A DNA stretch of 64,000 bases from a virus, in IMG/VR virus record IMGVR_UViG_3300010885_061525, positions 26,575 to 90,574 of that record; one strand, 5' to 3'. Of this stretch, positions 3-34,500 are shown in pieces. Position 1 is the first letter of the stretch. The number at the start of each line of letters is the position of its first letter. The position numbers and the translations under genes are program-made. Below the pieces are notes generated by a model. It was not told where the DNA came from and made no database searches. It was given only the letters and a program-made list of their open reading frames with translations.

Positions 3-638
3 AAACAGTTCAAAATACCTCTATTGATGGATGGTTTTAAATATGAGTATTATGATTTGGTTAAAGGCTCTATAGACAAAGGAAACTATGAGATACGAGG
101 GACTATTGACTTAATTACAGAAGTCGATAAAGATACTATAGAAATAGTTGATTGGAAAACAGGGTCTAGAAAATGTTGGAACAGCGGTGAAGTTAAAGAA
201 TATGAGTATCTCCAATCAAAAGATATACAGTTGAGAATGTATGATTTGGCATGCTCAATGATTTTTCCACAGTACAAAAATATTATACTGACCATTCATT
301 TTATAAATGACGGAGGTCCATTTACTGTGAGCTTCGATAATAGTCAAAGAAAAGAAACCATAGATATAATTAAAAACTCGTTCAACGCCATCAAATGGAA
401 TCAGCTTCCTTCTAGAATCAAGGATACCAAAGCTTCTGATAGATGGAAGTGCAAGAGTGTTTGCCATTTTGGTAAGACCCTTACTAATGCCGGCTGTAGT
501 ATCTGTGATACGATACATTCTTACGCTGTTGGAAACGGTATAGATAAAACCGTGTCGCAAATAAACGCTTTAAGAGCAGCTAAGGCTACAGAAAAAGCCA
601 AATTGACCAGCAATCGTAGAAATACATTTGAGGAATGA
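3..638 (+). CDS. PD-(D/E)XK nuclease, RecB/Cas4-like (5' cut by window edge)
   Basis: The frame is open to the left edge, so the real start probably lies outside the window; the first in-window start codons are TTG at 24 and ATG at 27. Counting from 24, the nuclease core reads GTID (Asp29), IVDWKTG (Asp43, Lys45), and the helix QLRMYDLA near residue 70, the Q-motif of RecB-family enzymes. Four cysteines near residues 143-161 (CKSVC and CSIC) could hold a metal or iron-sulfur cluster as in Cas4/AddB. The likely role is DNA end processing during phage replication or recombination. Its end lies just upstream of the polymerase start at 640, consistent with an operon. Confidence 0.75.
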   Translation, partial: KQFKIPLLMDGFKYEYYDLVKGSIDKGNYEIRGTIDLITEVDKDTIEIVDWKTGSRKCWNSGEVKEYEYLQSKDIQLRMYDLACSMIFPQYKNIILTIHFINDGGPFTVSFDNSQRKETIDIIKNSFNAIKWNQLPSRIKDTKASDRWKCKSVCHFGKTLTNAGCSICDTIHSYAVGNGIDKTVSQINALRAAKATEKAKLTSNRRNTFEE

Positions 639-639
639 A

Positions 640-2496
640 ATGAACTATATACCGCTGCATGTACATACCGGATGGTCTCTATTAGATAGCACTCTCGATG
701 TTGTCGAGTATGTAAATTTTATTAGTGAAAATGGCGGAAAAGCCTGCTCTATTACAGATCATAATAATATAAAGGCCCTAGTACCTTTTGCAAAAGCCTG
801 CAAAAATAAAGGAATAAAGCCGATAATTGGATGTGAACTAGACGTCTGGAATAATGACAGTTTTTTAGGTAGAATTACTCTAATAGCCAAAAACAAAACA
901 GGATATAAAAATCTTGTTTCTATTGTTTCCATAGCAAGAAGTAAGAACCGAGTAGAATCTGACGGATATCCAAAGTCATTTTTAAATGAACTTCATCAGT
1001 ATTCGGCTGGTCTTATTTGCCTTATTGGAGACTTGAGAAGTGAGATTTTCACTGAGTCATTCGTCAATCCCGAAATGGCATATAATTCAGACAGCGAAGA
1101 AGAGTGTAAGAAGCTACTACGGCATGATTTTAAATCGTCTATAGACTTAGTCATCAAAAAGTATCGTAAGATTTTCAATGATGTATTTATATACTTTGAC
1201 TATTCTAAACTCCCCTGTCTTAAGATACTAGGGTTGGCAATTAGGGATAATTTTCCGGAAGCTCTTCCGTCAAATAATATTCATTATCTTTCAAAATCAG
1301 ACTACATCATTCATAAGTTAATTGTCAATGATGAAGACAGGCTGTCAAATCCAATAGATGATAAACGAATTTTTAATGAGGAATATACCTTTTCTCACAT
1401 TTTAAAATCTCTTCCTGACGGGGAAAGGACTTTTAAACTGCTCGATTTAATTGAGAATTTTTCAATTGAAGAGAGGCCCATGATTCCAGATTTCAAGATT
1501 AAAGATCATATAATTTCAGATCAAGATGAATATCTAAGGAATATCTGTAGAAAGGGATTCTCAGAAAAAATACTTCCAAGGATAGGGGAGTCTTCAGAGA
1601 TTAAAGCGGTATATCTAGAAAGAATTAAACACGAGCTTTTTGTATTTAAACAAGCGAAAATATCAGGATATTTTTTGATTGTTAAAGACATAGTGGACTT
1701 CATTAAGTCTTTTGGTTATCCTGCAGACAGCAGAGGATCTTCATCTGGATCGATTATCTCTTACTTAATTGGAGTGTCGTCTATTGATCCGATTCTTCCA
1801 GACCCTACTCTAACCTACTCTAAGGAAAGAGAGCTTTCGTTTGAAAGATTCTATAACGAAGGAAGAAACACAGCCAGTAATGTTTCATTGCCAGATATAG
1901 ATATGGATCTACCACCTTCTATAAGAACGGATGTTATTGATCACATTAGAAATAAGTATGGAAACGATTGCGTTGCCCATATTATAACCCATTCTAGATT
2001 TAAAGGAAAGGGCGCTATTAAAGAGGCCTTTAGAATACTTAAGCCTATTAGCAACTACTTTGACGTAGCTAACGAAATAACAAAATTATTTGCAGAAGAG
2101 TCTAAGATTTCTGATGAACTTAGCGAGATCCAAGAAGAAGATCCGTCATATGGAATTATCCGCTGGAACATTGATAATATTTCGGATGTAGCCAAACACT
2201 ATGAAAAGTACAAAGAGGCTTTTGACTTTGCTATTAGAATAGAAAAACTCCCTAAAAATGAAAGCGTTCATGCCGCAGGCATTATCATAAGCGATAAAAT
2301 GCTTTCTAACCATTTTCCGATGACTTATTCTCAAAAGCTAGACCAAATGATAATCGATGTAGAAGGGGCTGATATAGAAATGCTGGGAGGGGTAAAGTTT
2401 GACATTCTTGGGGTTTCAGCCCTAGAAAAAATATATCAAATAGAAAAAATGATAAATCGTAAATTAAATGAAGTTCAATTTGGAATCTTGACTTGA
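640..2496 (+). CDS. dnaE: DNA polymerase III alpha subunit, N-terminal part (PHP + palm)
   Basis: This is the front half of a bacterial C-family replicative polymerase. The PHP domain opens with LHVHTGWSLLDS (His7, His9) and keeps ITDHN and IGCELD. The palm catalytic aspartates are visible in PDIDMDL (Asp419, Asp421) and VKFDILG (Asp588). I chose ATG 640 over TTG 628 because GAGGA sits five bases before it. The protein stops about 30 residues after the third catalytic Asp, where normal DnaE runs on into the fingers. The missing part is encoded 7.3 kb away at 9806-11326. No intein sequence is seen at the end. The two pieces probably assemble into one enzyme, unless this half is a dead remnant; its intact active site argues against that. 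Confidence 0.9.
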   Translation: MNYIPLHVHTGWSLLDSTLDVVEYVNFISENGGKACSITDHNNIKALVPFAKACKNKGIKPIIGCELDVWNNDSFLGRITLIAKNKTGYKNLVSIVSIARSKNRVESDGYPKSFLNELHQYSAGLICLIGDLRSEIFTESFVNPEMAYNSDSEEECKKLLRHDFKSSIDLVIKKYRKIFNDVFIYFDYSKLPCLKILGLAIRDNFPEALPSNNIHYLSKSDYIIHKLIVNDEDRLSNPIDDKRIFNEEYTFSHILKSLPDGERTFKLLDLIENFSIEERPMIPDFKIKDHIISDQDEYLRNICRKGFSEKILPRIGESSEIKAVYLERIKHELFVFKQAKISGYFLIVKDIVDFIKSFGYPADSRGSSSGSIISYLIGVSSIDPILPDPTLTYSKERELSFERFYNEGRNTASNVSLPDIDMDLPPSIRTDVIDHIRNKYGNDCVAHIITHSRFKGKGAIKEAFRILKPISNYFDVANEITKLFAEESKISDELSEIQEEDPSYGIIRWNIDNISDVAKHYEKYKEAFDFAIRIEKLPKNESVHAAGIIISDKMLSNHFPMTYSQKLDQMIIDVEGADIEMLGGVKFDILGVSALEKIYQIEKMINRKLNEVQFGILT

Positions 2497-2553
2497 GAGA
2501 ATAAGAGGACTTAATTGACTCTAGAATAATTGAAGCCATATAAGAATAGAAAT

Positions 2554-2559
2554 GTGTAT
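2554..2559 (+). promoter_or_regulatory. GTGTAT promoter-like element
   Basis: GTGTAT ends 11 bases before the ATG at 2571, and there is no obvious Shine-Dalgarno sequence. It is one of about fifteen such elements at gene starts in the window. Confidence 0.4.
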
Positions 2560-2570
2560 GTCTATACAAG

Positions 2571-3539
2571 ATGAAAGATAAAGACCTTTTTATTTTATTA
2601 AACGATATAGCCAATACTTCTAAGGCCTTTAAGCCGTTTGAAGGAAATCCGCCCCCAAATGTTGACCTGCCGGCAGATCATGGGATAGAAGATTTAATTC
2701 CTGCAGATGCAGATATAACCCCTGGATGGTTACTACGATATGGTATAACTTTTTCTGGTGGGCCTCTATTAATTGTGCTGTTAATAAAAGGAATGAGAGC
2801 CAAAAAATGGACTAGTAAGATGATACTAGATTGGCTTAAGAGGTACTTTTCTAATGATCCAACAAACCCAGGACAGTCTGATGAGTGTATGAGAAATCTT
2901 AAAGAATTAAACGATTACTTAAAAAAACAGTCAACTGTTAATATGGGGGGAAATATACAGTTAGTTCTTGACTTTCTTAAAGCCGCACAATTACTTATTT
3001 CCCTTGTAATGAGTCAGTGCAACTTCACGGATGATATGATAGAGCTGTTACTCCTTGGGTTTCTTTTAGAAAGACTCTTAGCCGCAGGTCTCACGGAAGC
3101 CCAAGCGAGAGCTTATATCAAATTATACGTAGAGTGGATTAGAAATGGTGCCAATGGACCTATGCCTACTCCGACAGGATCTTCTTCTGATCCTGAATGC
3201 GCCCCTGACGAAGAGAAAATAAAAGAGAAACTAAAAGATCGAGGGCTTATGGACGATATAGGAGAGGTGGCATGGAAAGCAGCCGTTCTTGCCGCAATAA
3301 TAGCGTTAATCGCGTTAGTAGCTGGTATTATTAGTGGATCTGGTGGAATTGGAACTCCTGCGACTATTCCTATAATTGCTCAAATTATCGCCTTGGCCGC
3401 TTTGATTGGGATTACTCTTTCAGAAGATGACGTTCGTGCTATTTCTAGAGATGCCTCTGCTAACTGTCAACAGACAGGAGTAGATACTGGTGGCCCTGTT
3501 GAAGCTTTGGTCAAAAGACTAAAAAATAGAAATAAATGA
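2571..3539 (+). CDS. Hypothetical membrane protein with internal-protein-like leader
   Basis: A 322-residue protein that I cannot assign to a family. The N-terminus (KDLFILLNDIANTSKAF) resembles the short amphipathic leader of the phage's small Cys-rich and wall-hydrolase proteins. A hydrophobic segment lies at about residues 57-73, and a longer pair at about 237-285 (AAVLAAIIALIALVAGII and a second stretch) could form a membrane hairpin. It stands alone between the polymerase half and a terminator at 3552-3585, with its own GTGTAT element at 2554. A role in membrane penetration or as an ejected virion protein is possible but inferred only from the leader and the hydrophobic helices. Confidence 0.7.
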   Translation: MKDKDLFILLNDIANTSKAFKPFEGNPPPNVDLPADHGIEDLIPADADITPGWLLRYGITFSGGPLLIVLLIKGMRAKKWTSKMILDWLKRYFSNDPTNPGQSDECMRNLKELNDYLKKQSTVNMGGNIQLVLDFLKAAQLLISLVMSQCNFTDDMIELLLLGFLLERLLAAGLTEAQARAYIKLYVEWIRNGANGPMPTPTGSSSDPECAPDEEKIKEKLKDRGLMDDIGEVAWKAAVLAAIIALIALVAGIISGSGGIGTPATIPIIAQIIALAALIGITLSEDDVRAISRDASANCQQTGVDTGGPVEALVKRLKNRNK

Positions 3540-3551
3540 ATGACGAGATTT

Positions 3552-3585
3552 AATAAAGCGCACCCATTCTCGGGTGCGCTTTATT
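3552..3585. terminator. Rho-independent terminator hairpin
   Basis: The arms 3552-3565 and 3572-3585 pair over 14 bp (core AAAGCGCACCC with GGGTGCGCTTT) around a 6-base loop. It follows the 2571-3539 gene and lies immediately before the next promoter element at 3591. Confidence 0.85.
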
Positions 3586-3590
3586 TATAA

Positions 3591-3596
3591 GTGTAT
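3591..3596 (+). promoter_or_regulatory. GTGTAT promoter-like element
   Basis: GTGTATTTAT lies right after a terminator and ends about 10 bases before the ATG at 3608. Its placement between a terminator and a new gene supports promoter function. Confidence 0.5.
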
Positions 3597-3607
3597 TTAT
3601 TCGTAAG

Positions 3608-4672
3608 ATGCCTAATCATCAAAACGATAAAATTTTATTTGTTGTAAAAGAAAGACAAGTGTACGGAGGGACCGCTAAAGCATATGGTCTACTTAACTCT
3701 TGTAAATTTGTCGCTGAGACGCTCTCAAGAAAAGGCATTCCTTCTGAAGTAGTGTCAGTTTTAGACAACAATTTCATCGATGCCGAGGTTGCTAGATTTA
3801 AGCCTAAGTTCTGCTTTATAGAAGCTGTATGGGTGGTCCCTTCTAAATTTGAAGTTTTGGCCGAATTGCATCCAAATGTAAATTGGATAGTTAGAATACA
3901 TTCAATGATCCCATTCTTAGCTGCTGAAAGTTTCGCTTTTGAATGGCTAAATGACTACATAGAGTTACGTAAAAAAGGTATAAAAATATCTTTAAGCTGT
4001 AATAACAAAAGACTTTATAATGACATTCAGCCGATTTTTAACTATGTCTCATATACTCCAAATATATATATCGAAGACACGGAACCATCAAATCTAACAT
4101 TTGATTTTAGTGCTAAAGACACTATTAACATAGGTTGTTTTGGAGCATTAAGACCGTTGAAAAATACGGTAAAACAAGCTATTTTAGCGATTAAATTTGC
4201 AAATGAAATAAATAAGCATCTTAAATTTCACATAAACATATCTGAATACGAGCAAGCCTTAGCTGGACCCACCTTAAAAAACTTGAGAGAAGTGTTTTCA
4301 AACATATCCGCAGAGCTTGTAGAGCACCCTTGGTACGATCACAATGATTTTCTTAAACTAGTTGGGGCTATGGATATAGGCATGCAGTTATCACTAAGTG
4401 AAACATTTAATATAACTGCGGCAGACTTTGTTAGTCAAGGAATTCCTATCGTAGTTTCCAAGGAAATTGAATTTATTGATGATCGTTGTAGAGTTGACGT
4501 TCATAGTGATAAAGAAGCAATTAAGGCTCTTCGCTACGCCTACTATAAATCATTCGACGATGGAAGAGTTTATCATCAAAGAAGAAATATAGCTGAAGAT
4601 AATAGAGAAAAACTGCAATACCATAACCATGAAGCAACTCATGCCTGGATCACTTTTATGCAAAATTCTTAA
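3608..4672 (+). CDS. GT-B fold glycosyltransferase (family 4-like)
   Basis: A 354-residue protein with the two-Rossmann GT-B layout. The N-domain begins DKILFVVKERQVYGGTAKA, and the C-domain begins near INIGCFGALRPLKN (about residue 175). The donor-binding signature region SETFNITAADFVSQGIPIVV (about 262-281) matches the E-x7-E region of GT4 enzymes, which transfer a sugar from a nucleotide donor. It is the first of several glycosyltransferases scattered between replication genes on this strand. The acceptor (phage DNA, virion or host surface glycan) is unknown. Its end abuts the converging minus-strand gene that ends at 4673. Confidence 0.8.
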   Translation: MPNHQNDKILFVVKERQVYGGTAKAYGLLNSCKFVAETLSRKGIPSEVVSVLDNNFIDAEVARFKPKFCFIEAVWVVPSKFEVLAELHPNVNWIVRIHSMIPFLAAESFAFEWLNDYIELRKKGIKISLSCNNKRLYNDIQPIFNYVSYTPNIYIEDTEPSNLTFDFSAKDTINIGCFGALRPLKNTVKQAILAIKFANEINKHLKFHINISEYEQALAGPTLKNLREVFSNISAELVEHPWYDHNDFLKLVGAMDIGMQLSLSETFNITAADFVSQGIPIVVSKEIEFIDDRCRVDVHSDKEAIKALRYAYYKSFDDGRVYHQRRNIAEDNREKLQYHNHEATHAWITFMQNS

Positions 4673-5026
4673 TTATTTCAGTTTTTGAAGTAAATCTATA
4701 TCAAACTGTTTATTTCTAAATTTTCCATTAACAATGGCGTAAATAAAGCTCTCTACTCGATGATATCCCCACTCATCAGGAGCGTCTTCAGATGCAGCTC
4801 TTGAGGATGAATTAGTTTTATGAGCGGCTACTCCTCTTCTAAAAACTTTCATTAATATTTTATATGTTATTTTTTTTGAAGACTCAAGTCCAAAAGTTGA
4901 ATTATGCGCTTCGGCAATAGCCTTCAAGTTCTCAATTGCGTCAGCTGATATTTTTTCTGCCGATGCGAAAAAGACTATATCTAAAAAACTCAAGTTTAAT
5001 TCAGCTTCCGGTATCAACTTTTTCAT
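4673..5026 (-). CDS. Hypothetical phage protein
   Basis: A 117-residue soluble protein. The central part contains TYKILMKVFRRGVAAHKT, then a basic/serine stretch and EWGYHRVESFIYAIVNGKF. I have an impression, not checked, that this arrangement recurs in small conserved phage proteins of unknown role. It starts inside the 3' end of the u-spanin candidate (26-base overlap), so it is probably the last gene of the minus-strand lysis operon 5698 to 4673. Confidence 0.7.
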   Translation of the reverse strand: MKKLIPEAELNLSFLDIVFFASAEKISADAIENLKAIAEAHNSTFGLESSKKITYKILMKVFRRGVAAHKTNSSSRAASEDAPDEWGYHRVESFIYAIVNGKFRNKQFDIDLLQKLK

Positions 5027-5270
5027 TTGAGCTATCCATTTTTTTTAAACTGTCACTATTATCTTTTTTAATAAACTCGCTATACGACCACATCATCCCA
5101 ATAAAAGCTATCGGAACATACCAAAATAACCAACCCCAGCCCGCTTCTTTTATGACCAAGTTAGATGAAGCATACACACCAGGCTGTTCAATTGGTTTTT
5201 TATATATGATCTCAGGAGTTCCTGAGCATCCAAATAACATTAACATTAAACATATTCTTATTTTTTTCAT
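5001..5270 (-). CDS. Candidate unimolecular spanin (lipoprotein with C-terminal TM)
   Basis: An 89-residue protein. The N-terminus MKKIRICLMLMLFGCSG is a lipoprotein signal with the lipobox cysteine at about residue 15. A hydrophobic helix (WLFWYVPIAFIGMMWSYSEF) at about 47-66 is followed by a charged tail. An outer-membrane lipid anchor plus an inner-membrane helix is the u-spanin layout (phage T1 gp11 type), used to fuse the two membranes at the end of lysis. The periplasmic linker is short (about 30 residues). It overlaps the stop of the holin-like gene by four bases (ATGA). A similar protein lies at 39594-39923. Confidence 0.65.
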   Translation of the reverse strand: MKKIRICLMLMLFGCSGTPEIIYKKPIEQPGVYASSNLVIKEAGWGWLFWYVPIAFIGMMWSYSEFIKKDNSDSLKKMDSSNEKVDTGS

Positions 5271-5698
5271 GACTTATTGGCCGCAGCGGCGCTCCCAAAG
5301 TAAAAGCCCACAATGCTCAATAAAACCTGTCTATATTCAGCTGCGTATAGGTATCCGCTAACTTCAACAAAAAACGTCTTACTCACTGATGGTATAATAC
5401 CCATGTCAGGAGTTTGAGTTTGAACCTCTACGAACGTTGAAATTCCAAAAAATGGAAGTATAAAAGGGGCAGCTAGTGTAGAGAATAAGACTACTATTAC
5501 GATAAGCCTTCTAACGCCTTTTCCTATATCAATAGGAACTCTTTTAGCGGCACTGTCTAAAGCCTTCTCTTTTTGCTCATTTAAGGCGACGAGCCGTTCA
5601 AACATGACTTTATCGTTATCTCTTTTTTCGGCTAAGTATCTGAATATAAATCCAGTAATACTTCCGCCTAACATAGAGAGTAGTTCTAACGGTATCAT
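5267..5698 (-). CDS. Holin-like three-TM membrane protein
   Basis: A 143-residue protein with a hydrophobic N-terminus (MLGGSITGFIFRYLAEKR), a charged stretch, a second membrane segment (RLIVIVVLFSTLAAPFIL, about 65-82) and a third (LLSIVGFYFGSAAAANK, about 124-142). Small three-TM proteins of this form serve as holins in phages and gene-transfer agents. It is directly followed by a u-spanin candidate with ATGA overlap, which supports a lysis cassette. I infer the holin function from topology and context; no holin-specific motif is known to me here. Confidence 0.6.
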   Translation of the reverse strand: MIPLELLSMLGGSITGFIFRYLAEKRDNDKVMFERLVALNEQKEKALDSAAKRVPIDIGKGVRRLIVIVVLFSTLAAPFILPFFGISTFVEVQTQTPDMGIIPSVSKTFFVEVSGYLYAAEYRQVLLSIVGFYFGSAAAANKS

Positions 5699-6027
5699 GT
5701 TTGATTATTTATATATTCTATAAATTTCCTGTGAATTGTTGATGATGTGTAATCGGTTACACTCTTACCGCCCTCCCACATCTTACAAGACCAATATCTA
5801 GCCTTCCATTTTGGCCCAACGTTATCATCGCAACTATGTCTAGCTCTGAAATTCTTTCTTCTAGCGGGGTTGTCTCTTTTGATCTCCATATTAGGATCTC
5901 CAAAAGTAACGCGAACAACGTTTCCTCTATCGTTTTTAACGTATACAGCAAATTTCTTTTTGCCGTAACCCGGCTCGCCTTTACCGATTCTTCTTGGCTT
6001 ATTTAATGTTACATTCTTCTTATCCAT
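5695..6027 (-). CDS. Conserved phage protein with SFRARH-like Cys motif
   Basis: A 110-residue basic protein. I start it at ATG 6027 (MDKKNVTLN) rather than at the upstream frame start, which would read into the preceding gene. The segment FGDPNMEIKRDNPARRKNF, then RARHSCDD and ARYWSCKMW, looks to me like a small domain found in many tailed phages, sometimes fused to structural or protease proteins, with no settled function. It overlaps the holin-like gene by four bases. The paired Cys/His residues could bind a metal. Confidence 0.75.
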   Translation of the reverse strand: MDKKNVTLNKPRRIGKGEPGYGKKKFAVYVKNDRGNVVRVTFGDPNMEIKRDNPARRKNFRARHSCDDNVGPKWKARYWSCKMWEGGKSVTDYTSSTIHRKFIEYINNQT

Positions 6028-6058
6028 TTTATTTACCCTTTGCGCTCCGTTATACCAA

Positions 6059-6613
6059 CTATAAAGTACGCCGCACAACTTCCCAAGCTACTCGGGGAAA
6101 AGCTCCTAAAGGATCGAAAATATTCGCGGCAGGTGGATTTATTAAAGGAGGTTTGGGTGCTAGCGTAACACATTTACCGATACAATCCATCATTTTTTGG
6201 GTGCCGCTTTGGTATCCTAGATTAGAACAGTGAATCCAGCATTCCGCATAATTTGCAGATGCCCAAAAATTTGGACAATTGAGTGCCGCAGTTGCCACTG
6301 TATCTATCCCGCTAACATCCGAGCCTCTACTTAATCCCAAGTGGCGAAAACAGTAAGTTGTTATCCACTTGAGATGTGCATCCCACCCATCCCTACTAGT
6401 TACCAAATCAGTAGCCTGATCCAAAAGATCGTGAATACAGTTACAATATTTTCGAGTCCTTTCTTGTCGAGTTGTCCCTGAGGGAGTTATTTGGAAGTCC
6501 ATGTCATCATTTATTTCATAATTCGGGTGGGTGGGCGGTGTTTTTTGTTGGACCGAAGCTCGATCAGCTCCGCTAATTTTATTAAGTACTCTTTTTAAAT
6601 TATCATTATTCAT
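6059..6613 (-). CDS. Small Cys-rich protein with shared N-terminal leader (copy 1)
   Basis: A 184-residue protein starting at ATG 6613. The leader is MNNDNLKRVLNKISGADRA. After a Pro-rich linker and DDMDFQITP come the CxC motif (KYCNCIHDLLDQ) and, near the C-terminus, a twin Cx3C arrangement (CWIHC, 14 residues, CIGKC). It is a clear duplicate of 6645-7184: the two share nearly identical leader and DDMDFQIT-coding DNA. There is no signal peptide, so the many cysteines would be reduced inside the host and could form disulfides only after leaving the cytoplasm. The function is unknown; I infer an internal virion protein. Confidence 0.75.
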   Translation of the reverse strand: MNNDNLKRVLNKISGADRASVQQKTPPTHPNYEINDDMDFQITPSGTTRQERTRKYCNCIHDLLDQATDLVTSRDGWDAHLKWITTYCFRHLGLSRGSDVSGIDTVATAALNCPNFWASANYAECWIHCSNLGYQSGTQKMMDCIGKCVTLAPKPPLINPPAANIFDPLGAFPRVAWEVVRRTL

Positions 6614-6644
6614 TTTATTTACCATTTGTACTCTGTTTCCCTAA

Positions 6645-7184
6645 CTATAAAAAACGCCGTTGAAGATGCCAAAGTATTCGGGGATAATCGCTTAAAGGAT
6701 CGAAACCATTCGTGGGGGGTACATAGTATGGAGGTAAGGGTCCTAGCTCAACACATTTACCGACACATTTTGTAAATTTTGAGCTTGATCTTATGTATCC
6801 TAGATTTTCACAGTGAATCTCGCATTCCACATAAGTTTCCATCGACCGAAACCATGAACAAACGTGTCTCGCAGCTGCCACTGTATCTATCCCGTTGTAT
6901 ACAACATCATATCCGGGACGAAATAGGTGGGGAATACAGGAAGTTGTTATCGACTTTAGCTGTGCATCCCACCCCTCTGTCGTAGCAGTAGCATTATTCA
7001 TAAGACCGTAAAGACAGTCACAAAATTTTTCAATTCTTTGTTTTTCAGTTGGAATCTCTGTGGGAGTTATTTGGAAGTCCATGTCATCATTTTGTTCATA
7101 TCCAGGTGGTGTTTTTTGTTGGACCGAAGCTCGATCAGCTCCGCTAATTTTATTGAGAACTCTTTTTAAATTATCATTATTCAT
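6645..7184 (-). CDS. Small Cys-rich protein with shared N-terminal leader (copy 2)
   Basis: A 179-residue paralogue of the gene at 6059-6613. It has the same leader (MNNDNLKRVLNKISGADRA), the same DDMDFQITP segment, a CxC motif (KFCDCLYGLMNN), and the pair CEIHC / CVGKC separated by 14 residues. The C-terminal parts (GFDPLSDYPRILW here, IFDPLGAFPRVAW in copy 1) are also alike. Copies diverge most between these blocks, as expected after a tandem duplication followed by selection. No known domain is recognised. Confidence 0.75.
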   Translation of the reverse strand: MNNDNLKRVLNKISGADRASVQQKTPPGYEQNDDMDFQITPTEIPTEKQRIEKFCDCLYGLMNNATATTEGWDAQLKSITTSCIPHLFRPGYDVVYNGIDTVAAARHVCSWFRSMETYVECEIHCENLGYIRSSSKFTKCVGKCVELGPLPPYYVPPTNGFDPLSDYPRILWHLQRRFL

Positions 7185-7221
7185 TTAGCGTTCCTTTACG
7201 CCATCTCTGATAGTACCATTA

Positions 7222-7602
7222 TCAAGCATGGTAGGGCAATGGGTGTTCAAGACATCCTCTAACACATGTGTTGAGGTCCGGATTGGTTGTGAATCCTCTG
7301 TTAATACATCTAAGCCTGCACTGTGCCAAACGAAGCGTATAATCAAGATTTGGGCATTTTAATTTAGCAAAAGCTAAGGAGTCTACAGTTTCTGGCGCGG
7401 AATAGTTATTGGTTTTTAAACATTCACTTGTTATCTGCCTGACAACTTTTTCGTCTCTCAGAGTTTCCAAATCTTGACTTAGGAAATTTTTACGTATCTT
7501 ACTTATACCCACGTACACACAGTCGCAATAGTTTGAAATTTGAAAAGTTGACTGATCGATGCCGCTAATTTTATTGAGTATTCTTTTTAAATTATTATTC
7601 AT
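7222..7602 (-). CDS. Small Cys-rich protein with shared N-terminal leader (copy 3)
   Basis: A 126-residue, shorter and more divergent member of the same family. I chose ATG 7602 (MNNNLKRILNKISGID) because the leader then aligns with copies 1 and 2; the alternative upstream start is a TTG. The CxC motif (NYCDCVYVGISK) follows the leader directly, without the Pro-rich linker. The Cx3C pair is CRLRC and CVRGC, 13 residues apart. Its start overlaps the stop of the upstream gene (7595) by eight bases, so the two are probably translated from one message. Confidence 0.75.
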   Translation of the reverse strand: MNNNLKRILNKISGIDQSTFQISNYCDCVYVGISKIRKNFLSQDLETLRDEKVVRQITSECLKTNNYSAPETVDSLAFAKLKCPNLDYTLRLAQCRLRCINRGFTTNPDLNTCVRGCLEHPLPYHA

Positions 7603-7861
7603 TTTTAGATCCAAGTGAAAGTTGATCTTCTGTCTTGCTTAGGACGTCTCCAGGACTAAACGTAGCCCCATTGTTTGCGACCTTATAATGTATTACGTAT
7701 CCAGAGTTATTACCTAACTCCTCAATCCTCACCACCTCTCCCATACTTCCGTAATGTATACATTTTTTATTAGTGTTAACCACTATATCCCCAATCCTAA
7801 AGCCCTTATAGCTAGAGATTGTGTATCTGAGGAGTTTATTTATCGCTTCTTTTAAGGACAT
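7595..7861 (-). CDS. Small phage protein with leader and beta-barrel-like domain
   Basis: An 88-residue protein from ATG 7861 (MSLKEAINKLLRYT). The first residues fit the shared leader pattern (compare NLKRVLNKISG). The rest, FRIGDIVVNTNKKCIHYGS followed by GEVVRIEEL, YVIHYKVANNG and FSPGDVLSKTEDQL, reads like a small SH3/KOW-type barrel of the kind seen in phage proteins, with no known function. The palindromic GTGTATACAC at 7877-7886 lies upstream and is shared with the divergent gene at 7891. Confidence 0.75.
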   Translation of the reverse strand: MSLKEAINKLLRYTISSYKGFRIGDIVVNTNKKCIHYGSMGEVVRIEELGNNSGYVIHYKVANNGATFSPGDVLSKTEDQLSLGSKNE

Positions 7862-7876
7862 TTTACAAATCCACAA

Positions 7877-7886
7877 GTGTATACAC
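7877..7886. promoter_or_regulatory. Palindromic GTGTATACAC, possible divergent promoter
   Basis: A perfect palindrome between the divergent starts 7861 (minus) and 7891 (plus). Each strand carries GTGTAT at the distance seen at other gene starts in the window, so one element could serve both directions. Confidence 0.5.
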
Positions 7887-7890
7887 ATAT

Positions 7891-8502
7891 ATGTTGAGTT
7901 CAAGGAGCGCCAAACGTTTTTTGAAGCACGTAAGACAGACATGCAAAAAACATGGAGTCAGTTTTAAAATCGGTAGAGGAAAACTCATACGAATGCGTCC
8001 GTATGGTTTTATGGTGGCAGGATATTTTGATGAAGATGAAAAAGTTCTAGTCTGCTCAAAAGGAACTTCCCAAGAAAGCTTTCTTTCCATCTTGGTCCAT
8101 GAATTTGCCCACCTTCTTCAGTGGATAGAAAATGAAAAAACTTACTGCTTGTGCAGCCATGTGAAATATGGTAATGTTCAAAACGCTATATGTATGTGGA
8201 TAAGTAATGAACTTACCATAAAGGATAGCTTAGTAAGATCTTACACTAAGAAAATGATAGCCTGCGAACTGAACGCGGAAAGAAGAGCTGTCAAGCTTAT
8301 AAAGCAGTTCAACCTTCCCATAAATCTAGATGAATACTCGTCCTCAGCCTCCGCTGGCTTATTTACTCATTTAATGACGGCTAAGACTAAGCAGTGGGAT
8401 TTTAAAATAGGAATAAAGCAAAAAATGGCGAGTGGTACATCCTTGAGAAGATCATTTAAAACTTTGCCAAAGAGTGTAGAAACAACATTCTCCGAAGCCT
8501 AA
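7891..8502 (+). CDS. Putative zinc metallopeptidase-like protein (HEFAH)
   Basis: A 203-residue protein. The motif SILVHEFAHLLQW (about residues 69-81) is a HExxH zinc-site signature, and CELNAERRAVKL (about 125-136) supplies a conserved Glu downstream, as in gluzincin-like or SprT-like folds. Phages often carry such short HExxH proteins without known substrate. Peptidase activity is a family-level guess. It starts just after the divergent GTGTATACAC palindrome and ends eight bases before the exonuclease gene. Confidence 0.65.
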   Translation: MLSSRSAKRFLKHVRQTCKKHGVSFKIGRGKLIRMRPYGFMVAGYFDEDEKVLVCSKGTSQESFLSILVHEFAHLLQWIENEKTYCLCSHVKYGNVQNAICMWISNELTIKDSLVRSYTKKMIACELNAERRAVKLIKQFNLPINLDEYSSSASAGLFTHLMTAKTKQWDFKIGIKQKMASGTSLRRSFKTLPKSVETTFSEA

Positions 8503-8510
8503 AATAACCC

Positions 8511-9167
8511 GTGCCAAACAATAGAAATTTCGTTGTATTCGATATAGAAACATCGGGTTTAGATCCAAATAAAGGTGCTGAAATTGTTCAAATAGCAGCG
8601 GTGGCGTTAAGATACTCAGATTATTCTGAAATCGAAGGAAGTGAATTCAATTTACTTCTAAAGCCTCAAAAACCCGAATTGGCCAGCAAAGAAGCTTTGA
8701 CTGTAATAGGCGATAGTCTTTGGAAAGACTCTTGTGAAAAAGGACTTCATCCAAAAGTTGGAATAAGAAAATTCAAAGAGTATTTAGAGTCATTCAATCC
8801 CACAAAGAAATTTTGGACGGCCCCTATTCTTGTAGGCTTTAACATTGTTAATTTTGACACACCTTTTATTAAGCACCAAATGGCCGCTTATAAAATAAGC
8901 TCTGGCGACGACGATTTTCCTTGGTCCAATATGCAGATAGATATGCTTCCATTGATGTTTTCCATCTTTGGAAGAGATGGACTTAAGAACAATAAAATGG
9001 ATACATATGCGGGACTGTTAGGGCTGGCAAGAGCCTCAGAAAATCATGACGCTAAAGAGGATATAGATATAACAAAACAGATGTTCCAAAGATATATGAA
9101 CTTTATGAATTTTAAGATCAGACCAAAGATAAAGACGAAAGAGAAAAATGAACAAGTTGCCGTTTAA
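8511..9167 (+). CDS. DnaQ-like 3'-5' exonuclease (DEDDh family)
   Basis: A 218-residue protein starting at GTG 8511. Exo I is FVVFDIETSGLDPNKGAEIV (Asp11, Glu13), Exo II is LVGFNIVNFDTPFI (Asp near residue 114), and Exo III is NHDAKEDI (about 181-188), whose His marks the DEDDh subtype. It most likely proofreads for, or acts beside, the split DnaE polymerase encoded on both sides of it. The gene continues into a small overlapping frame at 9148. Confidence 0.88.
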   Translation: MPNNRNFVVFDIETSGLDPNKGAEIVQIAAVALRYSDYSEIEGSEFNLLLKPQKPELASKEALTVIGDSLWKDSCEKGLHPKVGIRKFKEYLESFNPTKKFWTAPILVGFNIVNFDTPFIKHQMAAYKISSGDDDFPWSNMQIDMLPLMFSIFGRDGLKNNKMDTYAGLLGLARASENHDAKEDIDITKQMFQRYMNFMNFKIRPKIKTKEKNEQVAV

Positions 9168-9249
9168 AACCAATCCCCAATGCTTGAATGATTTATTAGA
9201 CGAGTTTGGATTAACAATGAATTATGAAGCTGGAAAAATAAATGAATAA
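9148..9249 (+). CDS. Possible 33-residue peptide
   Basis: A short frame from ATG 9148 to TAA 9249, starting MNKLPFKTNPQCLNDLLDEF. It overlaps the exonuclease stop by 20 bases and the next gene's start by eight, filling the only gap between them. That dense packing suggests it is translated, but its small size leaves this open. Confidence 0.4.
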   Translation: MNKLPFKTNPQCLNDLLDEFGLTMNYEAGKINE

Positions 9250-9781
9250 TTTTAAATATGCTTACGAAAGAATAGTAAACAAAACAGAGGCTTTCGATAA
9301 CACTGATAGAGATTTAATATTTTCTAAAGTTTTATCGTTATTTAACGGAGGTTCTGTAGATATTTTTCAGGTTGGAGCGATAGAAACCTTTGATGAGAGA
9401 TGGAGATATGGATCAGGATGGTCCGATATAATCTTTGGCAATTATATAAAAAATAATGGAGGATCTCTAACCATTTGCGACATTCATTTAGATAATATAG
9501 CAAATAGTTATTTCGCGGCATCTCATATGGGTTATAAAATTAACTTTGAGTTAGCAGACGCAGGAGAAATAATCTCAGGAAAAGACTACGATATCTACTA
9601 CCTAGACGGTGGTAACGATCCTAATGAAACCGAAAAGCAATTTAATAGTATTACAGCAAAAAAATGCGCGGTAATTATTGACGATCTTTTAATCAAAGGA
9701 GTTACTCTGATGGATAACATTGATTTTAATCATAAATACAAAGTAGCCAATGGAGTAGGCTTAATTCTTAAGGGTTTTTAA
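9242..9781 (+). CDS. SAM-dependent methyltransferase-like protein
   Basis: A 179-residue protein with a Rossmann-like pattern: DIFQVGAIETFD (motif I position, about 39-50), LTICDIHLDN (motif II, about 77-86), and YDIYYLDGGNDP (motif IV, about 117-128), followed by AVIIDDLL. This fits class I methyltransferases acting on small molecules or sugars. The glycine-rich loop is degenerate (QVGAIE rather than DxGxGxG), so activity is uncertain. It sits inside the region of glycosyltransferases and polymerase genes. Confidence 0.55.
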   Translation: MNNFKYAYERIVNKTEAFDNTDRDLIFSKVLSLFNGGSVDIFQVGAIETFDERWRYGSGWSDIIFGNYIKNNGGSLTICDIHLDNIANSYFAASHMGYKINFELADAGEIISGKDYDIYYLDGGNDPNETEKQFNSITAKKCAVIIDDLLIKGVTLMDNIDFNHKYKVANGVGLILKGF

Positions 9782-9805
9782 AATATTTTTTAAGAAACAC
9801 AAAAT

Positions 9806-11326
9806 ATGAAGTTTGACGCATCAGATATATCCCTTAAAAATGATAAGACTTGGCGCTTAATCCAAAACGGCTATACTGTTGGAGTGTTCCAGCTCGAAAG
9901 CGATCTAGGTAAAAAATGGGCTGCAACAATAAAGCCTACTAATATAAATGAACTTAGCGCCGTAATATCTCTTATTAGGCCAGCCTGTCTTGAAGCAGGT
10001 ATGACTGAGATATACTCTAAAGTTAAAAACGGATTAGCTGAAAAGCCAGATTATAATGATGAGGCTGTTAATAACATATTATCTCCCACAATGGGGGTTT
10101 TGATATATCAAGAACAGTTGATGAAATTTGGTGGGGAAATAGCATGGGGAGATATGCCGTATTTAGATAGACTTGTTATTGTTGATAAGTTAAGAAAAGG
10201 CATTGGTAAAAAAGATCAGAAAATAATTATTGATCTTAAAGATAAATTCATTAATGGGTGTCTCAGAAATGGTCGATCTAAGGAAATAGCCGAACGGTTA
10301 TTTGCCCTAATTGAAGGAGCTGGAAGATACGCCTTTAATGACGCTCACGCTAAAAAATACGCTCTTTGGTCATACAAGACGGCGTATTTAAAAGCCAATT
10401 TCCCACTCGAGTTTTATTGCGTATATCTTACATATAGCAAGGGTAAGCAAAAGCCTCGTGAAGAGATACAAGATCTCATCAACGAAGGAAGAATGCTTGA
10501 AATAGATATCCTTGCCCCTTCTATCGAAAAGTCACAGTCCGACTTTAGCATACAAAATAATAAAATCGTGTTTGGTCTATCGCATATAAAGCAAGTTGGA
10601 GATTCCGATTCTGCCGTAATTATGAAGTACCGACCGAGTAAGTTCACTGATTTTATCAGACTTCATTTTAATACAGAGGGGGAAAAGCTAAGATCTCTTG
10701 CGGTAGAAAGCCTAATAGGCTGCGGGGCTTGTGATGCTTATGGATTGTCTAGAGCCGCAATGATGAGCGTTTATCTAATGCTCAAAGAATTGACCCCTAA
10801 AGAAATAGAATTTATATTTGCAAACACTCCAAGCGGAGCAGACACAAAAGAATTGATAGATGTCGTTTATAGGTGCGCTAATGAAAAGTCAATCAAAAAA
10901 CGCAAAGATATAGTATCTTCCGAAGCTTCTTCAATAAATCTTTTGATAGACGATTCAATAATAATCAAAAGCTCATCAGAAAAAGATCTTATGGGTTTCT
11001 CCTTTAGCTACGATCATAACGTAAATACTGAAGACAATTGGTCTTGCAAAGAATGTTTTAACAGAGCAAAAAACAACAGAAATTTAACCGCTGTGTTTAC
11101 AGCCAAAATAGATAAGATTAAAAAAACAATCACTAAGAAAGGAAAAAACCCAGGTCAGGAAATGTGTCAAATTTCAATATCAGATAACACTGGATCTATA
11201 AGTGTTGTTTGTTTTCCTGAACAGTATGGCAAGCATAAAAAGGAATTATACGAAGGATCTTATTGTACACTCAAGCTAAAAGGAGCCGGTTTCGGTTGGT
11301 CGATAGAAACGATCAAAATCAATTAA
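9806..11326 (+). CDS. dnaE: DNA polymerase III alpha subunit, C-terminal part (fingers, HhH, OB)
   Basis: The 506-residue protein starts at the exact region where the 640-2496 product stops. DISLKNDKTWRLIQNG and VGVFQLES match the DnaE stretch just after the third catalytic Asp. It continues with LIYQEQLM, AFNDAHAKKYALWSYKTAYL, a helix-hairpin-helix region, and an OB-fold-like segment (CQISISDNTGSISVVCF, about 446-462). It lacks the final tau-binding domain. There is no catalytic Asp in this half, so it should be inactive alone. No intein C-terminal splice motif precedes it. I infer a two-polypeptide polymerase. Confidence 0.9.
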   Translation: MKFDASDISLKNDKTWRLIQNGYTVGVFQLESDLGKKWAATIKPTNINELSAVISLIRPACLEAGMTEIYSKVKNGLAEKPDYNDEAVNNILSPTMGVLIYQEQLMKFGGEIAWGDMPYLDRLVIVDKLRKGIGKKDQKIIIDLKDKFINGCLRNGRSKEIAERLFALIEGAGRYAFNDAHAKKYALWSYKTAYLKANFPLEFYCVYLTYSKGKQKPREEIQDLINEGRMLEIDILAPSIEKSQSDFSIQNNKIVFGLSHIKQVGDSDSAVIMKYRPSKFTDFIRLHFNTEGEKLRSLAVESLIGCGACDAYGLSRAAMMSVYLMLKELTPKEIEFIFANTPSGADTKELIDVVYRCANEKSIKKRKDIVSSEASSINLLIDDSIIIKSSSEKDLMGFSFSYDHNVNTEDNWSCKECFNRAKNNRNLTAVFTAKIDKIKKTITKKGKNPGQEMCQISISDNTGSISVVCFPEQYGKHKKELYEGSYCTLKLKGAGFGWSIETIKIN

Positions 11327-11367: not shown

Positions 11368-11787
11368 ATGGCAAATTTTAATAAAGTTATCGTTGCAGGA
11401 AATCTAGTTTCAGATCCAGAAGTTAAAACTATTGGAGACTCAAGCGTTGTGCGTTTTAGGATTGCTATCAATCGTAAATTCACAACAAAATCTGGAGAGA
11501 AGAAGGAGGAGAGTACTTATATTGACGCTGAAATGTGGGGACCACGAGCGGATGTAATATCTAAGTATGTCAAAAAGGGAGATCCTATCCTAATGGAGGG
11601 TCGTCTCAAACAAGAAAATTGGGAAACTAAAGACGGTGAAAAGCGTAGTAAAATTCTTGTAGCAATTGATGATTTTGAATTTATGAATGGAAAAAAGGAT
11701 AGTGATGAAAAAGCCTCTGCTGATTCAAAGCCTTACGTTAAAACGAAGCCTAAACAAGAAGTGTCATTACAAGATATTCCATTCTAA
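11368..11787 (+). CDS. ssb: Single-stranded DNA-binding protein
   Basis: A 139-residue SSB from ATG 11368 (MANFNKVIVAGNLVSDPEV). The OB-fold landmarks NKVIVAGNL, VVRFRIAINRKF, IDAEMWGPRADVISKYVKKG and LMEGRLKQENWE are all present, followed by a flexible tail that ends SLQDIPF, matching the acidic-hydrophobic tip (DDIPF type) that recruits replication partners. It follows the polymerase C-part by 41 bases and overlaps the next gene (TAATG), so it belongs to the replication operon. Confidence 0.93.
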   Translation: MANFNKVIVAGNLVSDPEVKTIGDSSVVRFRIAINRKFTTKSGEKKEESTYIDAEMWGPRADVISKYVKKGDPILMEGRLKQENWETKDGEKRSKILVAIDDFEFMNGKKDSDEKASADSKPYVKTKPKQEVSLQDIPF

Positions 11788-28537: not shown

Positions 28538-31500
28538 TTACAATCCTGGAAGAGGTATATTGCTAGCCTGGAATACCTCTCTGAGTTTTCCAATAACATT
28601 ATCAAAAACCTTATCTCCAACGGTTCTCATTGACTCCTCTACCTTAGTAAGATCAAACGTAACGCTTATATCTTTGACTCCGCTTATTACTACATTTATC
28701 TGTTTTGGTATAGCGCTAATAGCAGCTGTTAGACTGCTTACTTGATCATTCATTATGCTTAAGTTTGCAGAAGTGGATTTGTCCATTTGCATTCTAGCCG
28801 ATTGTATTTCCGTAGCTATTTTTTGAGCGTCTTGTATGAGCTTGTTTGCTTGATCTACAGTTGATTTTATGTCTGTTGTTTTAACATCAATTCCTAAGGC
28901 TTGGAATTCTGGTCTGCTGGCTAAGGCCGCCTGTATAGCCGCAGCCAATTGCTCTCCACTTAAACCTGATTGTGTTAGCGTGTTAGCACCGATCTGTCTT
29001 GAAAAATCCATCAACTCAGTTAGTTGCTTTGTGCTTAGACCTGCAATTTGATTTTCTACAAGTCTAGCAACATTTTGGTTTGTTAGAATTGTATTTACGC
29101 CTTGATCCTTGGCGTTTGGAATGGCTCTTGTTATTGCCGCAGCTATATCATTGGCATTTCCTGCGGCTCTTGAAAGAGTCATTTTATTCATTGAATTATC
29201 AGCAGGAGTTCCTCCATATAACTTTCCAATAAGTGATTCTAACGTCGCCTTTTGTTCTGACAGCTTCTTGGATGTTATGTCTACTTGACTTCCGACTAAT
29301 TTAAACTGAGACTCCAACACCTCTAATGAATTTATTAAACCTCTCTCAATCGAGCTTCTTAAATTCATTAAACGGCCGCTAAGCTCGAATACGTTATCGC
29401 TTATATTAAAACTAGAATCTAAAGCAGCAAGTTGGCTCATTAGATCCTTTATGTATGGAAGCTCAAGAATGTTACTAGGAGCATTATTTGGCATTGATGG
29501 ATCTGCTGTCAGCGCCCTTTGAGCTTCTATACTTGTTTGTAATTGTTTGATAATAGAAAGCTCGGAACCTGCCTTACTAGGATCCCTAGTTGATATTGCT
29601 GCTGTTAACTCTGAGAGCGGATTAGCGGTCGTTGACTCAGGCGCTCTTGGCAGCTCAACTGCTCGCGCTGCTGTCGGAGGGACTTTTGGAAGTTTCTCGT
29701 CTGCTAATAGTTTACCTTGTGCGGCGAGATTAGTATTATCACTTTCTTTAATTGCATCAGAGACATTCGGACCAAGGGAGTTATGGCCTCTACTTTTATC
29801 TTTTCTGCTCTGCTGTATCACCTTCTGCATTATTACTCTTGCTTTATCTAACCGAGACTCTCTATCTTCCGACAACCCCCGCTGTTCTGCAGTATTAGGT
29901 AGCTGAGCTTGTAAACCATAAGGCAATCTCTCTTCTACAGCTGGAAATTTATATGTTTGGTTAGACCTGAGCACGTCCCCAGGTTGCTGTGCCGCAGTAC
30001 TAGGTTCCTGAATTGATAAATCATCAGATTGACCTCTAGTTTTTGCGTCTTTCACTTCCAATATCACTCGGTCCATTTTCGCTCTTGCGTCATCTAACCG
30101 AGACTCTCTATCTTTCGACAACCCCCGCTGTTCTGCAGTATTAGGTAGCTGAAGTTCTAAATTAGGACTTAGTTTGGCGTCTAATTTTAATCTCCTATAA
30201 GTCTTAGGTGGATCATCAGATTTACCTCTATTTTTATCGTTTGATGGTGATCGTTTGTCGTTAGTAGTAGTTGCATTTGAACTATTTACTACAGCTGACC
30301 CACTTTCAGTTTCTATATTTGTTTGTAATAGTCCAGCGGCAGTGGTCTTATTACCTATTATATTAGAGTTTGGTATATTTTGACGCTGGCTTAAGGCCTG
30401 TGTCTGAATATCTAAGGAAGCTTGAGCCGCCCCTCTTTGAGTTTTTAGACCAAGGGCGCCTTGAAAACCCTCTATAGTTGAGCGGTTGTCTGCAATAGCT
30501 TTGGCTAATTCAACTTGAGATTTATATGACTCTTGTTCAGCCGCAGCCCTTGCTTCTATTGTTTTTGCCTGTAATTCATATGCGTTATTTGCTAATGTTA
30601 TTAAGGCGTTTGCTTGAGCGATTTGGGCGGAACCAGCTTCGTCAACTCCTAAAAGTTTACTAGAATTAAACCCTCCGGTATTTTTATCTTGCAATGCCTT
30701 TCCTAATGCCTCTAGACTAAATGGTAACTTTCCTTGTGATCCTGATTTTTGAATAATATCAAATAATTTTTGTCCTGCGCTACCCAATCCCTTCAGATCG
30801 CCGAGCCTATCGTCTATGACTGCTCTCACGTCTTTTGCTGACTGAAATGTAGTTCCACTCGTAACCGATCCGCTTTTTGCTGCGGCCGCATCTTCTTCTT
30901 GAGTGGCCCTAGCTTGAAGCCCTCCAATCGCTTTTAAGCTTTCCGGCTCTAAATTAAGAAGTAAATTATTTTGAACATTCTTATCCGCTTGGCTGAATTG
31001 AATAAAAACTTCGTTGAGTGTGTTTTTTAATGACTGTATTTCAGGACTGTTTACTCTTTGAGCTTTTTGTCCAGTGATTGCTTCGATAGCGTTAGAAGCT
31101 GCTGCTACATTTCTATCGGTAGGATCTGTATTTATCTGCTGAATTGATCCAACCTTGAATGGAGAAGACAATATACCTTTAGTTGTTTCTAATTGAGTTG
31201 ATAGTCTTTGAGTTTCTGAAACAAGAACGCCTATTAAGGATGTTTGGCTTTTTATTGATGATGAAAGAGCGTTACTGAATACGTTTAATGAACGCTCCGC
31301 AGCATCTGATATTTCCGCTAATGATTTAAATGTAAACTTAAATCTAGTTATAGACGCAGTAAATACATCAGCCCCTTCTTCTACTGCTGTAAACTCGTCA
31401 CGTAAAGACTTGAATATTTTTTCCTCATCAAATTTAACTCCCTCAACAGTAAGTTTTTCGGCTAAAACTTTAGCGGTTTTCTCAGCAGCAGCTGTTCTTG

Positions 31501-34500
31501 TCTCAACATTATCTTGGCTCTCAGGTATCGATCTAGCATTTCTTTGGAAATTAGAAATGATTGTGTTTCTTACGAACTCAGCCGTTGCGGCAAGCCCTTT
31601 TTCCGCTTCAGCTATTTTTTCTTCATCGCCGCCAAAGGCTTGCTTGAGTGACTCTCTTATTTCCCCTTTATTTGTTTCGCTTGCTGACTTTCCAGCCCCT
31701 CCCGATATTAAAAAGTCTTGTATGCCACCAGTAGTTGTCGCTGCTCCTGTGCCAACTTTATATTGCTGACCCTTTTTCAAAAACCCATTCTTTAACGCTT
31801 GCTTTTGTATCTCTTGCACTTTTGCTATAGCTTTAAGATAATCCTCAGTGTCTTTATTTGCTGAAGGTAGGTCAAAATCCGTCTTTAATTCGCCAGAAGC
31901 TATCACTTTTTCAGCGGCGTTAAATCTGGATCCTCGATTAGATTGATCTCTAATTTTTCCCAACTCTTTTTCTTGAGCGTTTGATTCTGTAAGAGCGCCA
32001 TATGCAGATATTCCAGCAGAAGCAATAGCTGTTCCAGCAATAATGTATGGATTTCCGGTTAATAACGAAGCGGTGAGTCCTCCTAGAGCGCCACCTTGGA
32101 CTGAAGATGATGCAATATTTTGATTAGCATCACTCATATCCGTCATAGGAAGAATAGTATTTACTATGGCTGGAGCCGCTGTAGCCGCAGCTAGTCCATA
32201 CAAAGGATTTATTCCACCCGAAAGTCTTCCAATTAAGTTTCTACCGCCACCTCTTGCTGCTCCAGCAGCAGCACCAGCAACTCCTGCAGGTATTCCTCCT
32301 CCCGCGCCTCCTGGTCTTATTGCCGCCGCCATTCCTATAGCCTGCCCTCCAGCCCCTGGAGGTCTAATTGTTTCTATAGCGGTTCTTAATCTATCGAGAG
32401 ACTGAGTATTTAATCTAACACTGTTTTGCCCCGCAACATAGGCTCTTATAGATCCTCTTAAAACTGCTACTATTCCTACTGTTATAGCGCCTTGCGCTAA
32501 AGGATTCAATACATCCGCCCCTTTTACTGGGCCAATTCTTGCCTCTGGAACTGCTGACAGTATCGAACCCAATCCTACAGGAATTCTTAGTATGGCTTTA
32601 GTTCCGGGGTTATTATAAATTCCTTCTATGAATCTAAGGTAACTAGCTCTTATCTTATCAATAGCTGGGCCTATATCATCTAAGCGTCTTCTGGCGTCGT
32701 TCACTATGGAATCGGACGCCCCCGCGCTTAATTCTAGAATTCTAGTTTCAACTTCTTTTAATCCGTCTAAAAGAGACGCAAGCCTTCCTACAGACCTTAC
32801 ATCAACGATTGACGCTAGCGATTGCGTTGCACCTTGACTCTTGCTAATTTTTTGGTATTCCGTAGCTAAAGATATAAGTCTTTCGTATGGATCAGATATA
32901 TTATCAACGTCAACTCCCAACTTTCTCATAGCCGCTTCGGCTCTAGGAGTGTTAATTCTAACAGAAAGGCTTTTCAAAAACGTTCCGATTGCAGGAGCGG
33001 CCTCTCTAGTCTTTTCTCTTAACACAGTAACTAACTTTATATAGTCTTCAAAGTTTCCTCCTACAGCAGCAAACGATCCTCCTCCTCGTTTAATAGCTTC
33101 GAATAAATCTTGTGCTTCAACAGCATATGCCTTTGAATACTCATTGACCAACCCTAATATGTACGGGGTTTCTGACAATGATCTATTAAACTGATTTACT
33201 GTAGCAATCAATCCGTCAATTACTTCCGCCGAGCTTCCGAAGCTGGGACCAAGAGTAGCAAAAGATACCGCTCTAATAGTCTCATCAAATCCCGGCTTTC
33301 CTCTACTAAATCCTGCCGCAGCAAGAGTCTTGGCTGATACAGCTAAAGATTTAGCAGTCTCCCCTGTAATCTCTGAAAGATCTAGAACTTGCTTCTTAGT
33401 TTTAGCTGCTGCTAATGACGCCTCATCAAATGATTCTGCTAATGAACCAGTGTTATTAAATCCTGAGTCAAAAATCTGCTCTATACTAGTAATTTCTTTT
33501 TCTAACAAGGCTGTTTCTACAATCGCTGCTCTTGAAGCTGATATTAATCCGTATAAACCAATCGCTCCAAAAGCGTAAGAAGCTAGTTTTTGCGTGGCCA
33601 GTCCCACTCTTGCTCCTACGCGATCAAAAGCAGACTCCCCATACTTCGCTATAATTTCAAATCCAGATTTAGATCCTTGTGAAACGGCAGCTAGGTCATC
33701 ATTGAATTGTCTCAGGCCTGCGCTCTGTTCACTCATTCTTTGCTGAGATCCGGTTCTTATTACCGACAATCTTTGACTTGGAATCTGTGTTAAATCTCTT
33801 CCCGCATCATCCCCCAATACCTGTCTTGTCGCCTGCGCTCTTAGTCTTTGTTGGTCTATTTGAATTGGTTTTAGAGGATCTCCGTTAGCATCAGAACCCC
33901 CTCTTCTAGAGAAATTGTTTACCGCCCGAGCCTGCTTTTCGAGAGCTAAAGTAGTTTGATCTATGAGTTTATTTATTGCCGCTATTTCTGCGACTTGGCG
34001 TCGTCTTTCTGTAGCTTCTTCTATTAATCTCTGACGATTTCTAGCGTTAGTAGCGGCTACACGTCTTTCGTTCTCGGCCTCAAGCGCTCCTTGCGCTTTA
34101 ATAGCCTCATTCTGAGCATTTGTCGCTACGACAATTTTGTTTCTAGTAGCTACATTCTCAGCAGCATCAGAAGAAGAAAGTGTTTGTCTGGCCGATGCTA
34201 ACGTTTTCACCTCTGGCCCAGAATCAGATTTTCTAACATTACTGCTTACAATTTTAGCTTCTATGTCTGCGTTAGAAGGAGCCGCGCCTCCTGTAAATGC
34301 AGCTTTTCTTCTTTCTAATTCTATTTGTTTTTCTATTAATCTACTTAGGCGTCCAATATTCTTTTCCGTTGCAACTTCTATATTAGCCCTAGCTGATATG
34401 ATTTGCAACTCCTGCTGTCTTTGATCCGATACAGGCTTGGTGGCGGAGGCCAATCTATCTCTTACCGCTCTTCTGTCAGGGTTCGCTAAATCCTCTTCGG

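What the first reader, a model, noticed from the sequence alone, without database searches (positions are those of the whole stretch)
640..11326. Replicative polymerase DnaE split into two genes 7.3 kb apart
Seen in sequence: 640-2496 ends just after the third catalytic Asp (VKFDILG); 9806-11326 resumes at DISLKNDKTWRLI, the very next conserved block, with little or no sequence lost. No split-intein motifs flank the break, and the position differs from the cyanobacterial DnaE split-intein site (near the FN(K/D)xHxxxYA motif). The intervening 7.3 kb holds genes on both strands, including a lysis cassette and the DnaQ-like exonuclease. Inference: the halves assemble without covalent ligation, or the messages are trans-spliced. 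An eight-base match (ATGAAGTT) occurs at both break ends (2468-2475, 9806-9813), but direct joining there would shift the frame by one.
Basis: partly seen in the sequence, partly recalled or inferred. Interest (0 to 1): 0.7.

Follow-up and report, generated by a model that had tools for sequence, protein, structure and literature searches.

The report
Phage DNA polymerase made in halves
A large, mostly uncultured group of phages, including this one, makes its only recognisable DNA-copying enzyme (a bacterial-type DnaE) as two separate proteins with the proofreading-nuclease gene lying between them, a lasting arrangement that points to an enzyme assembled from parts.

Summary
DnaE is cut between palm and fingers: 640-2496 carries PHP and palm with all three catalytic Asp; 9806-11326 carries fingers, HhH and OB. 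Nothing is missing (E. coli alpha 3-575 and 585-900).

It is neither decay nor assembly error. At least 109 distinct metagenomic viral loci (34-78% identical) have the same break, and all keep the DnaQ-like exonuclease gene between the halves; 41 sampled ones form a single clade. In the compact form the order is nuclease, DnaE-N, (59-aa ORF), exonuclease, DnaE-C, SSB. The C-half start abuts or overlaps the exonuclease stop in 108 of 113 loci, so no room is left for introns or inteins. The 7.3 kb gap here is a later insertion between DnaE-N and the exonuclease.

In 23 large contigs (90-244 kb) each half occurs exactly once, with no family A or B polymerase. Best explanation: two chains, made from one replication operon, assemble without a peptide bond; the assembly itself is inferred. 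Trans-splicing is not supported.

A cultured phage, Rossellomorea phiT1, has a break at the same loop and makes this testable. New variant of a known kind (split phage polymerases); I found no description of this clade in the open literature searched.

The parts
24..638 (+). PD-(D/E)XK (RecB/Cas4-type) nuclease just upstream of DnaE-N; first gene of the conserved operon
   Evidence: PF12705; matched in 161 of the loci held
640..2496 (+). DnaE N-half: PHP and palm/thumb with D421, D423 and D588; own stop and a 9-residue tail
   Evidence: PF02811, PF07733; E. coli alpha 3-575; one copy in the genome
2571..8502 (.). Block of genes on both strands inserted between DnaE-N and the exonuclease in the window's subclade; absent from L007, L012 and L020
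   Evidence: gene-by-gene tblastn against relatives
8511..9167 (+). DnaQ-like DEDDh 3'-5' exonuclease, always located between the two DnaE halves
   Evidence: PF00929, phrog_192; between the halves in 109 of 109 distinct loci
9242..9781 (+). Conserved hypothetical gene between exonuclease and C-half, found only in some close relatives
   Evidence: no Pfam or PHROG match; relatives in L003, L004 and L012
9806..11326 (+). DnaE C-half: fingers, HhH and OB; own ATG start
   Evidence: PF17657, PF14579, PF01336; E. coli alpha 585-900; one copy
11368..11787 (+). Single-stranded DNA-binding protein directly after DnaE-C; last replication gene of the conserved block
   Evidence: PF00436, phrog_44; matched in 151 loci

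Best explanation
This is a naturally two-chain replicative DNA polymerase of the C family. Shown: one conserved operon encodes DnaE-N (PHP, palm, thumb), a DnaQ-like exonuclease and DnaE-C (fingers, HhH, OB) as three separate reading frames with their own starts and stops; both halves keep their catalytic motifs and strong constraint; no other DNA polymerase is recognisable in these genomes; the break is ancestral to a large phage clade; and the window's wide gap is a later insertion between DnaE-N and the exonuclease. Inferred: the two chains fold separately and join at the palm/fingers boundary without a peptide bond, probably together with the exonuclease, to form the phage replicase. The break may have arisen by insertion of the exonuclease gene, or by duplication of a dnaE-exo pair followed by loss of complementary parts; which one is not known.
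For: Clean break with nothing lost. Same break at 34-78% identity, gap 0.67-9.3 kb. One clade, support 100/100, in trees with unsplit phage and E. coli DnaE. Exonuclease between the halves, and palm DxDxD and KxD motifs intact, in 109/109. C-half start within -26 to +24 nt of the exonuclease stop in 108/113; N-half stop to exonuclease start mostly 150-200 nt, filled by a 59-aa ORF, and 0 nt in some. One palm and one finger domain, no PolA or PolB, in 23 contigs of 90-244 kb. pN 0.15-0.33 against pS 0.70-0.82, saturated, for both halves and the exonuclease. Precedent: gp43A and gp43B, the split family B polymerase of Aeromonas phage 25, co-purify and are active (PMC2988022). A cultured phage, phiT1, has two DnaE genes broken at the same loop.
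Against: No direct evidence of physical association or activity. SD-like triplets precede the C-half start in only 52 of 113 loci. The records are metagenomic and may be incomplete, so a polymerase of an unrecognised kind is not excluded.
Confidence: 0.85

Rival explanations
1. The messages of the two halves are joined by a split (trans-splicing) intron, so a single full-length DnaE is made.
For: Nothing is missing at the break; trans-splicing introns exist in other systems.
Against: Each half has its own start and stop; in compact relatives the next gene starts right at the N-half stop and the C-half start overlaps the exonuclease stop; no Rfam intron in the window's first 14 kb or in six loci.
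Confidence: 0.02
2. The halves are ligated after translation by a split intein, as in cyanobacterial DnaE.
For: A clade member, L073, does carry a split intein with a free-standing endonuclease, but at another site (GRG|S in the palm).
Against: No intein sequence at the palm/fingers break in any locus read: N-half tails are 0-20 residues and C-half leaders up to about 40 residues without intein end motifs. The L073 case shows that reading the ends does reveal an intein when present.
Confidence: 0.01
3. The split is a recent disruption and the gene is dying, or the contig is misassembled.
For: The gap in the window is large and holds genes on both strands.
Against: Same break in more than 100 distinct contigs; low pN/pS; catalytic motifs intact; the window's gap order is shared with L002, L003, L005 and L017.
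Confidence: 0.01
4. The two proteins have separate roles (for example DnaE-N as a PHP nuclease or terminal transferase, DnaE-C as a DNA-binding accessory) and replication uses a host polymerase.
For: No interaction has been shown.
Against: Both halves keep the residues of the shared polymerase active site and the pair stays together in one operon with SSB and proofreading exonuclease.
Confidence: 0.06

Closest known systems
Split family B DNA polymerase gp43A/gp43B of T4-related Aeromonas phages 25 and 44RR (PMC2988022)
   Same: Phage replicative polymerase encoded as two adjacent polypeptides; reported to co-purify and be active without ligation.
   Different: Another polymerase family and break site, with a homing endonuclease or an untranslated spacer at the break, not a proofreading exonuclease gene.
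Split minimal Pol III alpha of group 2.2 jumbo phages (PMC7824862)
   Same: Phage C-family polymerase in two proteins thought to reconstitute one enzyme.
   Different: Minimal (no PHP or other Pol III domains), distant genes, accompanied by a family B polymerase. Here PHP and OB are kept, the genes form an operon around the exonuclease, and no PolB is found.
Cyanobacterial DnaE with split intein
   Same: DnaE from two genes.
   Different: Joined by an intein at another position, inside the fingers (own knowledge); no intein here.
Rossellomorea phage phiT1 gp20/gp19/gp18 (GenBank PV767480)
   Same: DnaE broken at the same palm/fingers loop with a small ORF in between; a cultured phage.
   Different: No exonuclease between the halves; about 29-36% identity; relation to the clade unresolved (AU p 0.345; 72/89).
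Gordonia phage Terapin gp65/gp67 and Microbacterium phage OverHedge gp55/gp56
   Same: Phage DnaE in two genes.
   Different: Break lies between PHP and palm, not palm and fingers.

Membership tests
C-family DNA polymerase (DnaE) | PHP, palm with three catalytic Asp, fingers, HhH and OB in this order | tested here: met
   spread over two chains
C-family DNA polymerase (DnaE) | single polypeptide | tested here: not met
   two ORFs 7.3 kb apart; split in every clade member found
C-family DNA polymerase (DnaE) | polymerase activity | not testable with these tools
   needs purified proteins
C-family DNA polymerase (DnaE) | clamp-binding motif | not tested
   -
Split-intein DnaE | N- and C-intein segments at the break | tested here: not met
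   break ends read in about 110 loci
Fractured gene with homing endonuclease | free-standing homing endonuclease at the break | tested here: not met
   none in the window; an HNH ORF occurs at the break only in L020
Trans-spliced split intron gene | intron halves flanking the break | tested here: not met
   no Rfam intron and no non-coding room in compact loci
Group 2.2 jumbo-phage split minimal Pol III | lacks PHP and other Pol III domains and accompanies a family B polymerase | tested here: not met
   PHP and OB present; no PolB in 23 contigs
Split replicase assembling without ligation (as gp43A/gp43B) | the two chains co-purify as an active enzyme | not testable with these tools

The most novel reading that the evidence does not exclude
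The proofreading exonuclease, whose gene sits at the break in every clade member, is the protein that holds the two DnaE halves together. The replicase would then be an obligate N-exo-C complex built as the operon is translated, and polymerase activity would depend on the exonuclease.
Probability: 0.2. Interest if true: 0.8.

Novelty: new variant of a known kind. Interest (0 to 1): 0.6.

Why it matters
Replicative polymerases are thought to be held closely to one-chain cores. Here a widespread phage clade, with contigs up to 244 kb, has kept its only recognisable polymerase in two pieces across deep divergence, with the proofreader encoded between them. It shows that the palm/fingers joint of C-family polymerases tolerates a chain break, gives a natural split DnaE for engineering, and warns that annotation pipelines will call such enzymes partial or missing. 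A cultured phage with a break at the same loop makes assembly testable.

Tried and rejected
Intron (Rfam): none. Intein at the break: none. Meaning of the 8-base repeat: chance, not conserved. Lysis cassette: no family match. Host from bacterial genomes: no relative in genome contigs. Whether phiT1's split shares the clade's origin: not resolved. First motif count for the palm was out of frame and was redone. Pseudomonas phage Y1 (L176) clusters with E. coli DnaE in the tree and may be bacterial sequence in an unverified record, so it carries no weight.

Full report
WHAT IS THERE. The window lies in a 90,574-base IMG/VR viral record. DnaE is in two reading frames. 640-2496 holds PHP and the palm/thumb with D421, D423 and D588, the counterparts of E. 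coli D401, D403 and D555 (counterparts by motif and alignment; exact E. coli numbering and catalytic roles from general knowledge of E. coli alpha). 9806-11326 holds fingers, HhH and OB. The two halves match consecutive parts of phrog_405, 42-617 and 625-1054, and of E. coli alpha, 3-575 and 585-900. The break lies in the loop after the palm, before the fingers; no conserved sequence is lost.

IT IS A CLADE TRAIT. Searches of viral contigs with both halves gave relatives at 34-78% identity. Apart from L034, every locus that carries both halves has them as separate genes at the same site, 0.67 to 9.3 kb apart. After removing duplicates, 109 loci hold both halves with the exonuclease between them, and all 109 keep the palm motifs; finger and exonuclease motifs are kept in 101-109 of 109. 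In trees with unsplit DnaE of phages and E. coli the metagenomic split loci are one clade (99 with 41 rows; 100/100).

THE OPERON. The conserved order is PD-(D/E)XK nuclease, DnaE-N, (59-aa ORF in most), DnaQ-like exonuclease, DnaE-C, SSB, glycosyltransferase. In L007 the exonuclease ATG follows the DnaE-N stop directly and DnaE-C starts 13 nt after the exonuclease stop. In 108 of 113 loci the C-half start lies within -26 to +24 nt of the exonuclease stop, most often overlapping it by 4 or 8 nt. This suggests translational coupling (inference). In the distant group the C-half begins with a conserved leader of about 25-40 residues that contains CGCxF; its role is unknown.

WHY 7.3 kb HERE. Genes between 2571 and 8502, on both strands, lie between DnaE-N and the exonuclease. 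Parts of this block are shared with L002, L003, L005, L017 and, in part, L010-L016 and L102-L105, but not with L007, L012 or L020. By the tree the block entered before the split of the L102 and window lines and was lost again in L007 (inference). L007 closed the gap but did not fuse the halves.

FUNCTION. In 23 contigs of 90-244 kb each half is found exactly once and neither PolA nor PolB is found. Non-synonymous change is low while synonymous change is saturated. So the halves are most likely the phage's replicase. That they assemble without a bond is inferred from the lack of any splicing element, from the absence of room for one, and from the precedent of gp43A/gp43B (PMC2988022).

CULTURED CASE. 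Rossellomorea phage phiT1 has DnaE as gp20 (573 aa) and gp18 (469 aa) with a 49-aa gp19 between them, broken at the same loop. It is annotated as two alpha subunits; no paper on it was found. It may be a second, independent split. Other cultured DnaE phages examined are unsplit at this site; Terapin and OverHedge are split between PHP and palm.

NOVELTY. Split replicative polymerases are known in phages: family B (PMC2988022, PMC6892783), family A (PMC10580990) and a minimal Pol III (PMC7824862). I found no report of a full DnaE split at palm/fingers around the exonuclease gene, but only open-licence papers could be searched. Hence: new variant of a known kind.

Noticed in passing
L073:5969-9042: DnaE-N itself is fractured by a split intein at the palm GRG|S site, with a free-standing endonuclease ORF (7437-8225) between the intein halves, giving a DnaE in three pieces.
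   Followed up: partly
L020:8568-8933: HNH endonuclease ORF lies directly after DnaE-N at the break, in one locus only.
   Followed up: partly
L021:9932-10000 and many other loci: C-half leader with a conserved CGCxF motif, absent from the window's subclade; function unknown.
   Followed up: partly
L021:9065-9244: Conserved 59-aa ORF (MKFHELAVGEKF...CCK) between DnaE-N and exonuclease in most of the clade; no Pfam or PHROG match.
   Followed up: partly
L034:6322-12754: A viral DnaE whose PHP-like part lies 2.6 kb upstream of the polymerase part, a different break.
   Followed up: no
window 6059-7614 (- strand): Three neighbouring ORFs (6059-6625, 6645-7184, 7222-7614) with similar N-termini (MNN(D)NLKRxLNKISG...; nearly identical in the first two), apparently a tandem duplication; no relatives in the loci held.
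   Followed up: no
window 28538-37495 (- strand): A single ORF of 2985 codons, not examined.
   Followed up: no
L188:2822-6422: Cellulophaga phage phiST DnaE region is unannotated and lies in two overlapping frames broken inside the palm; a split or a sequencing frameshift.
   Followed up: no
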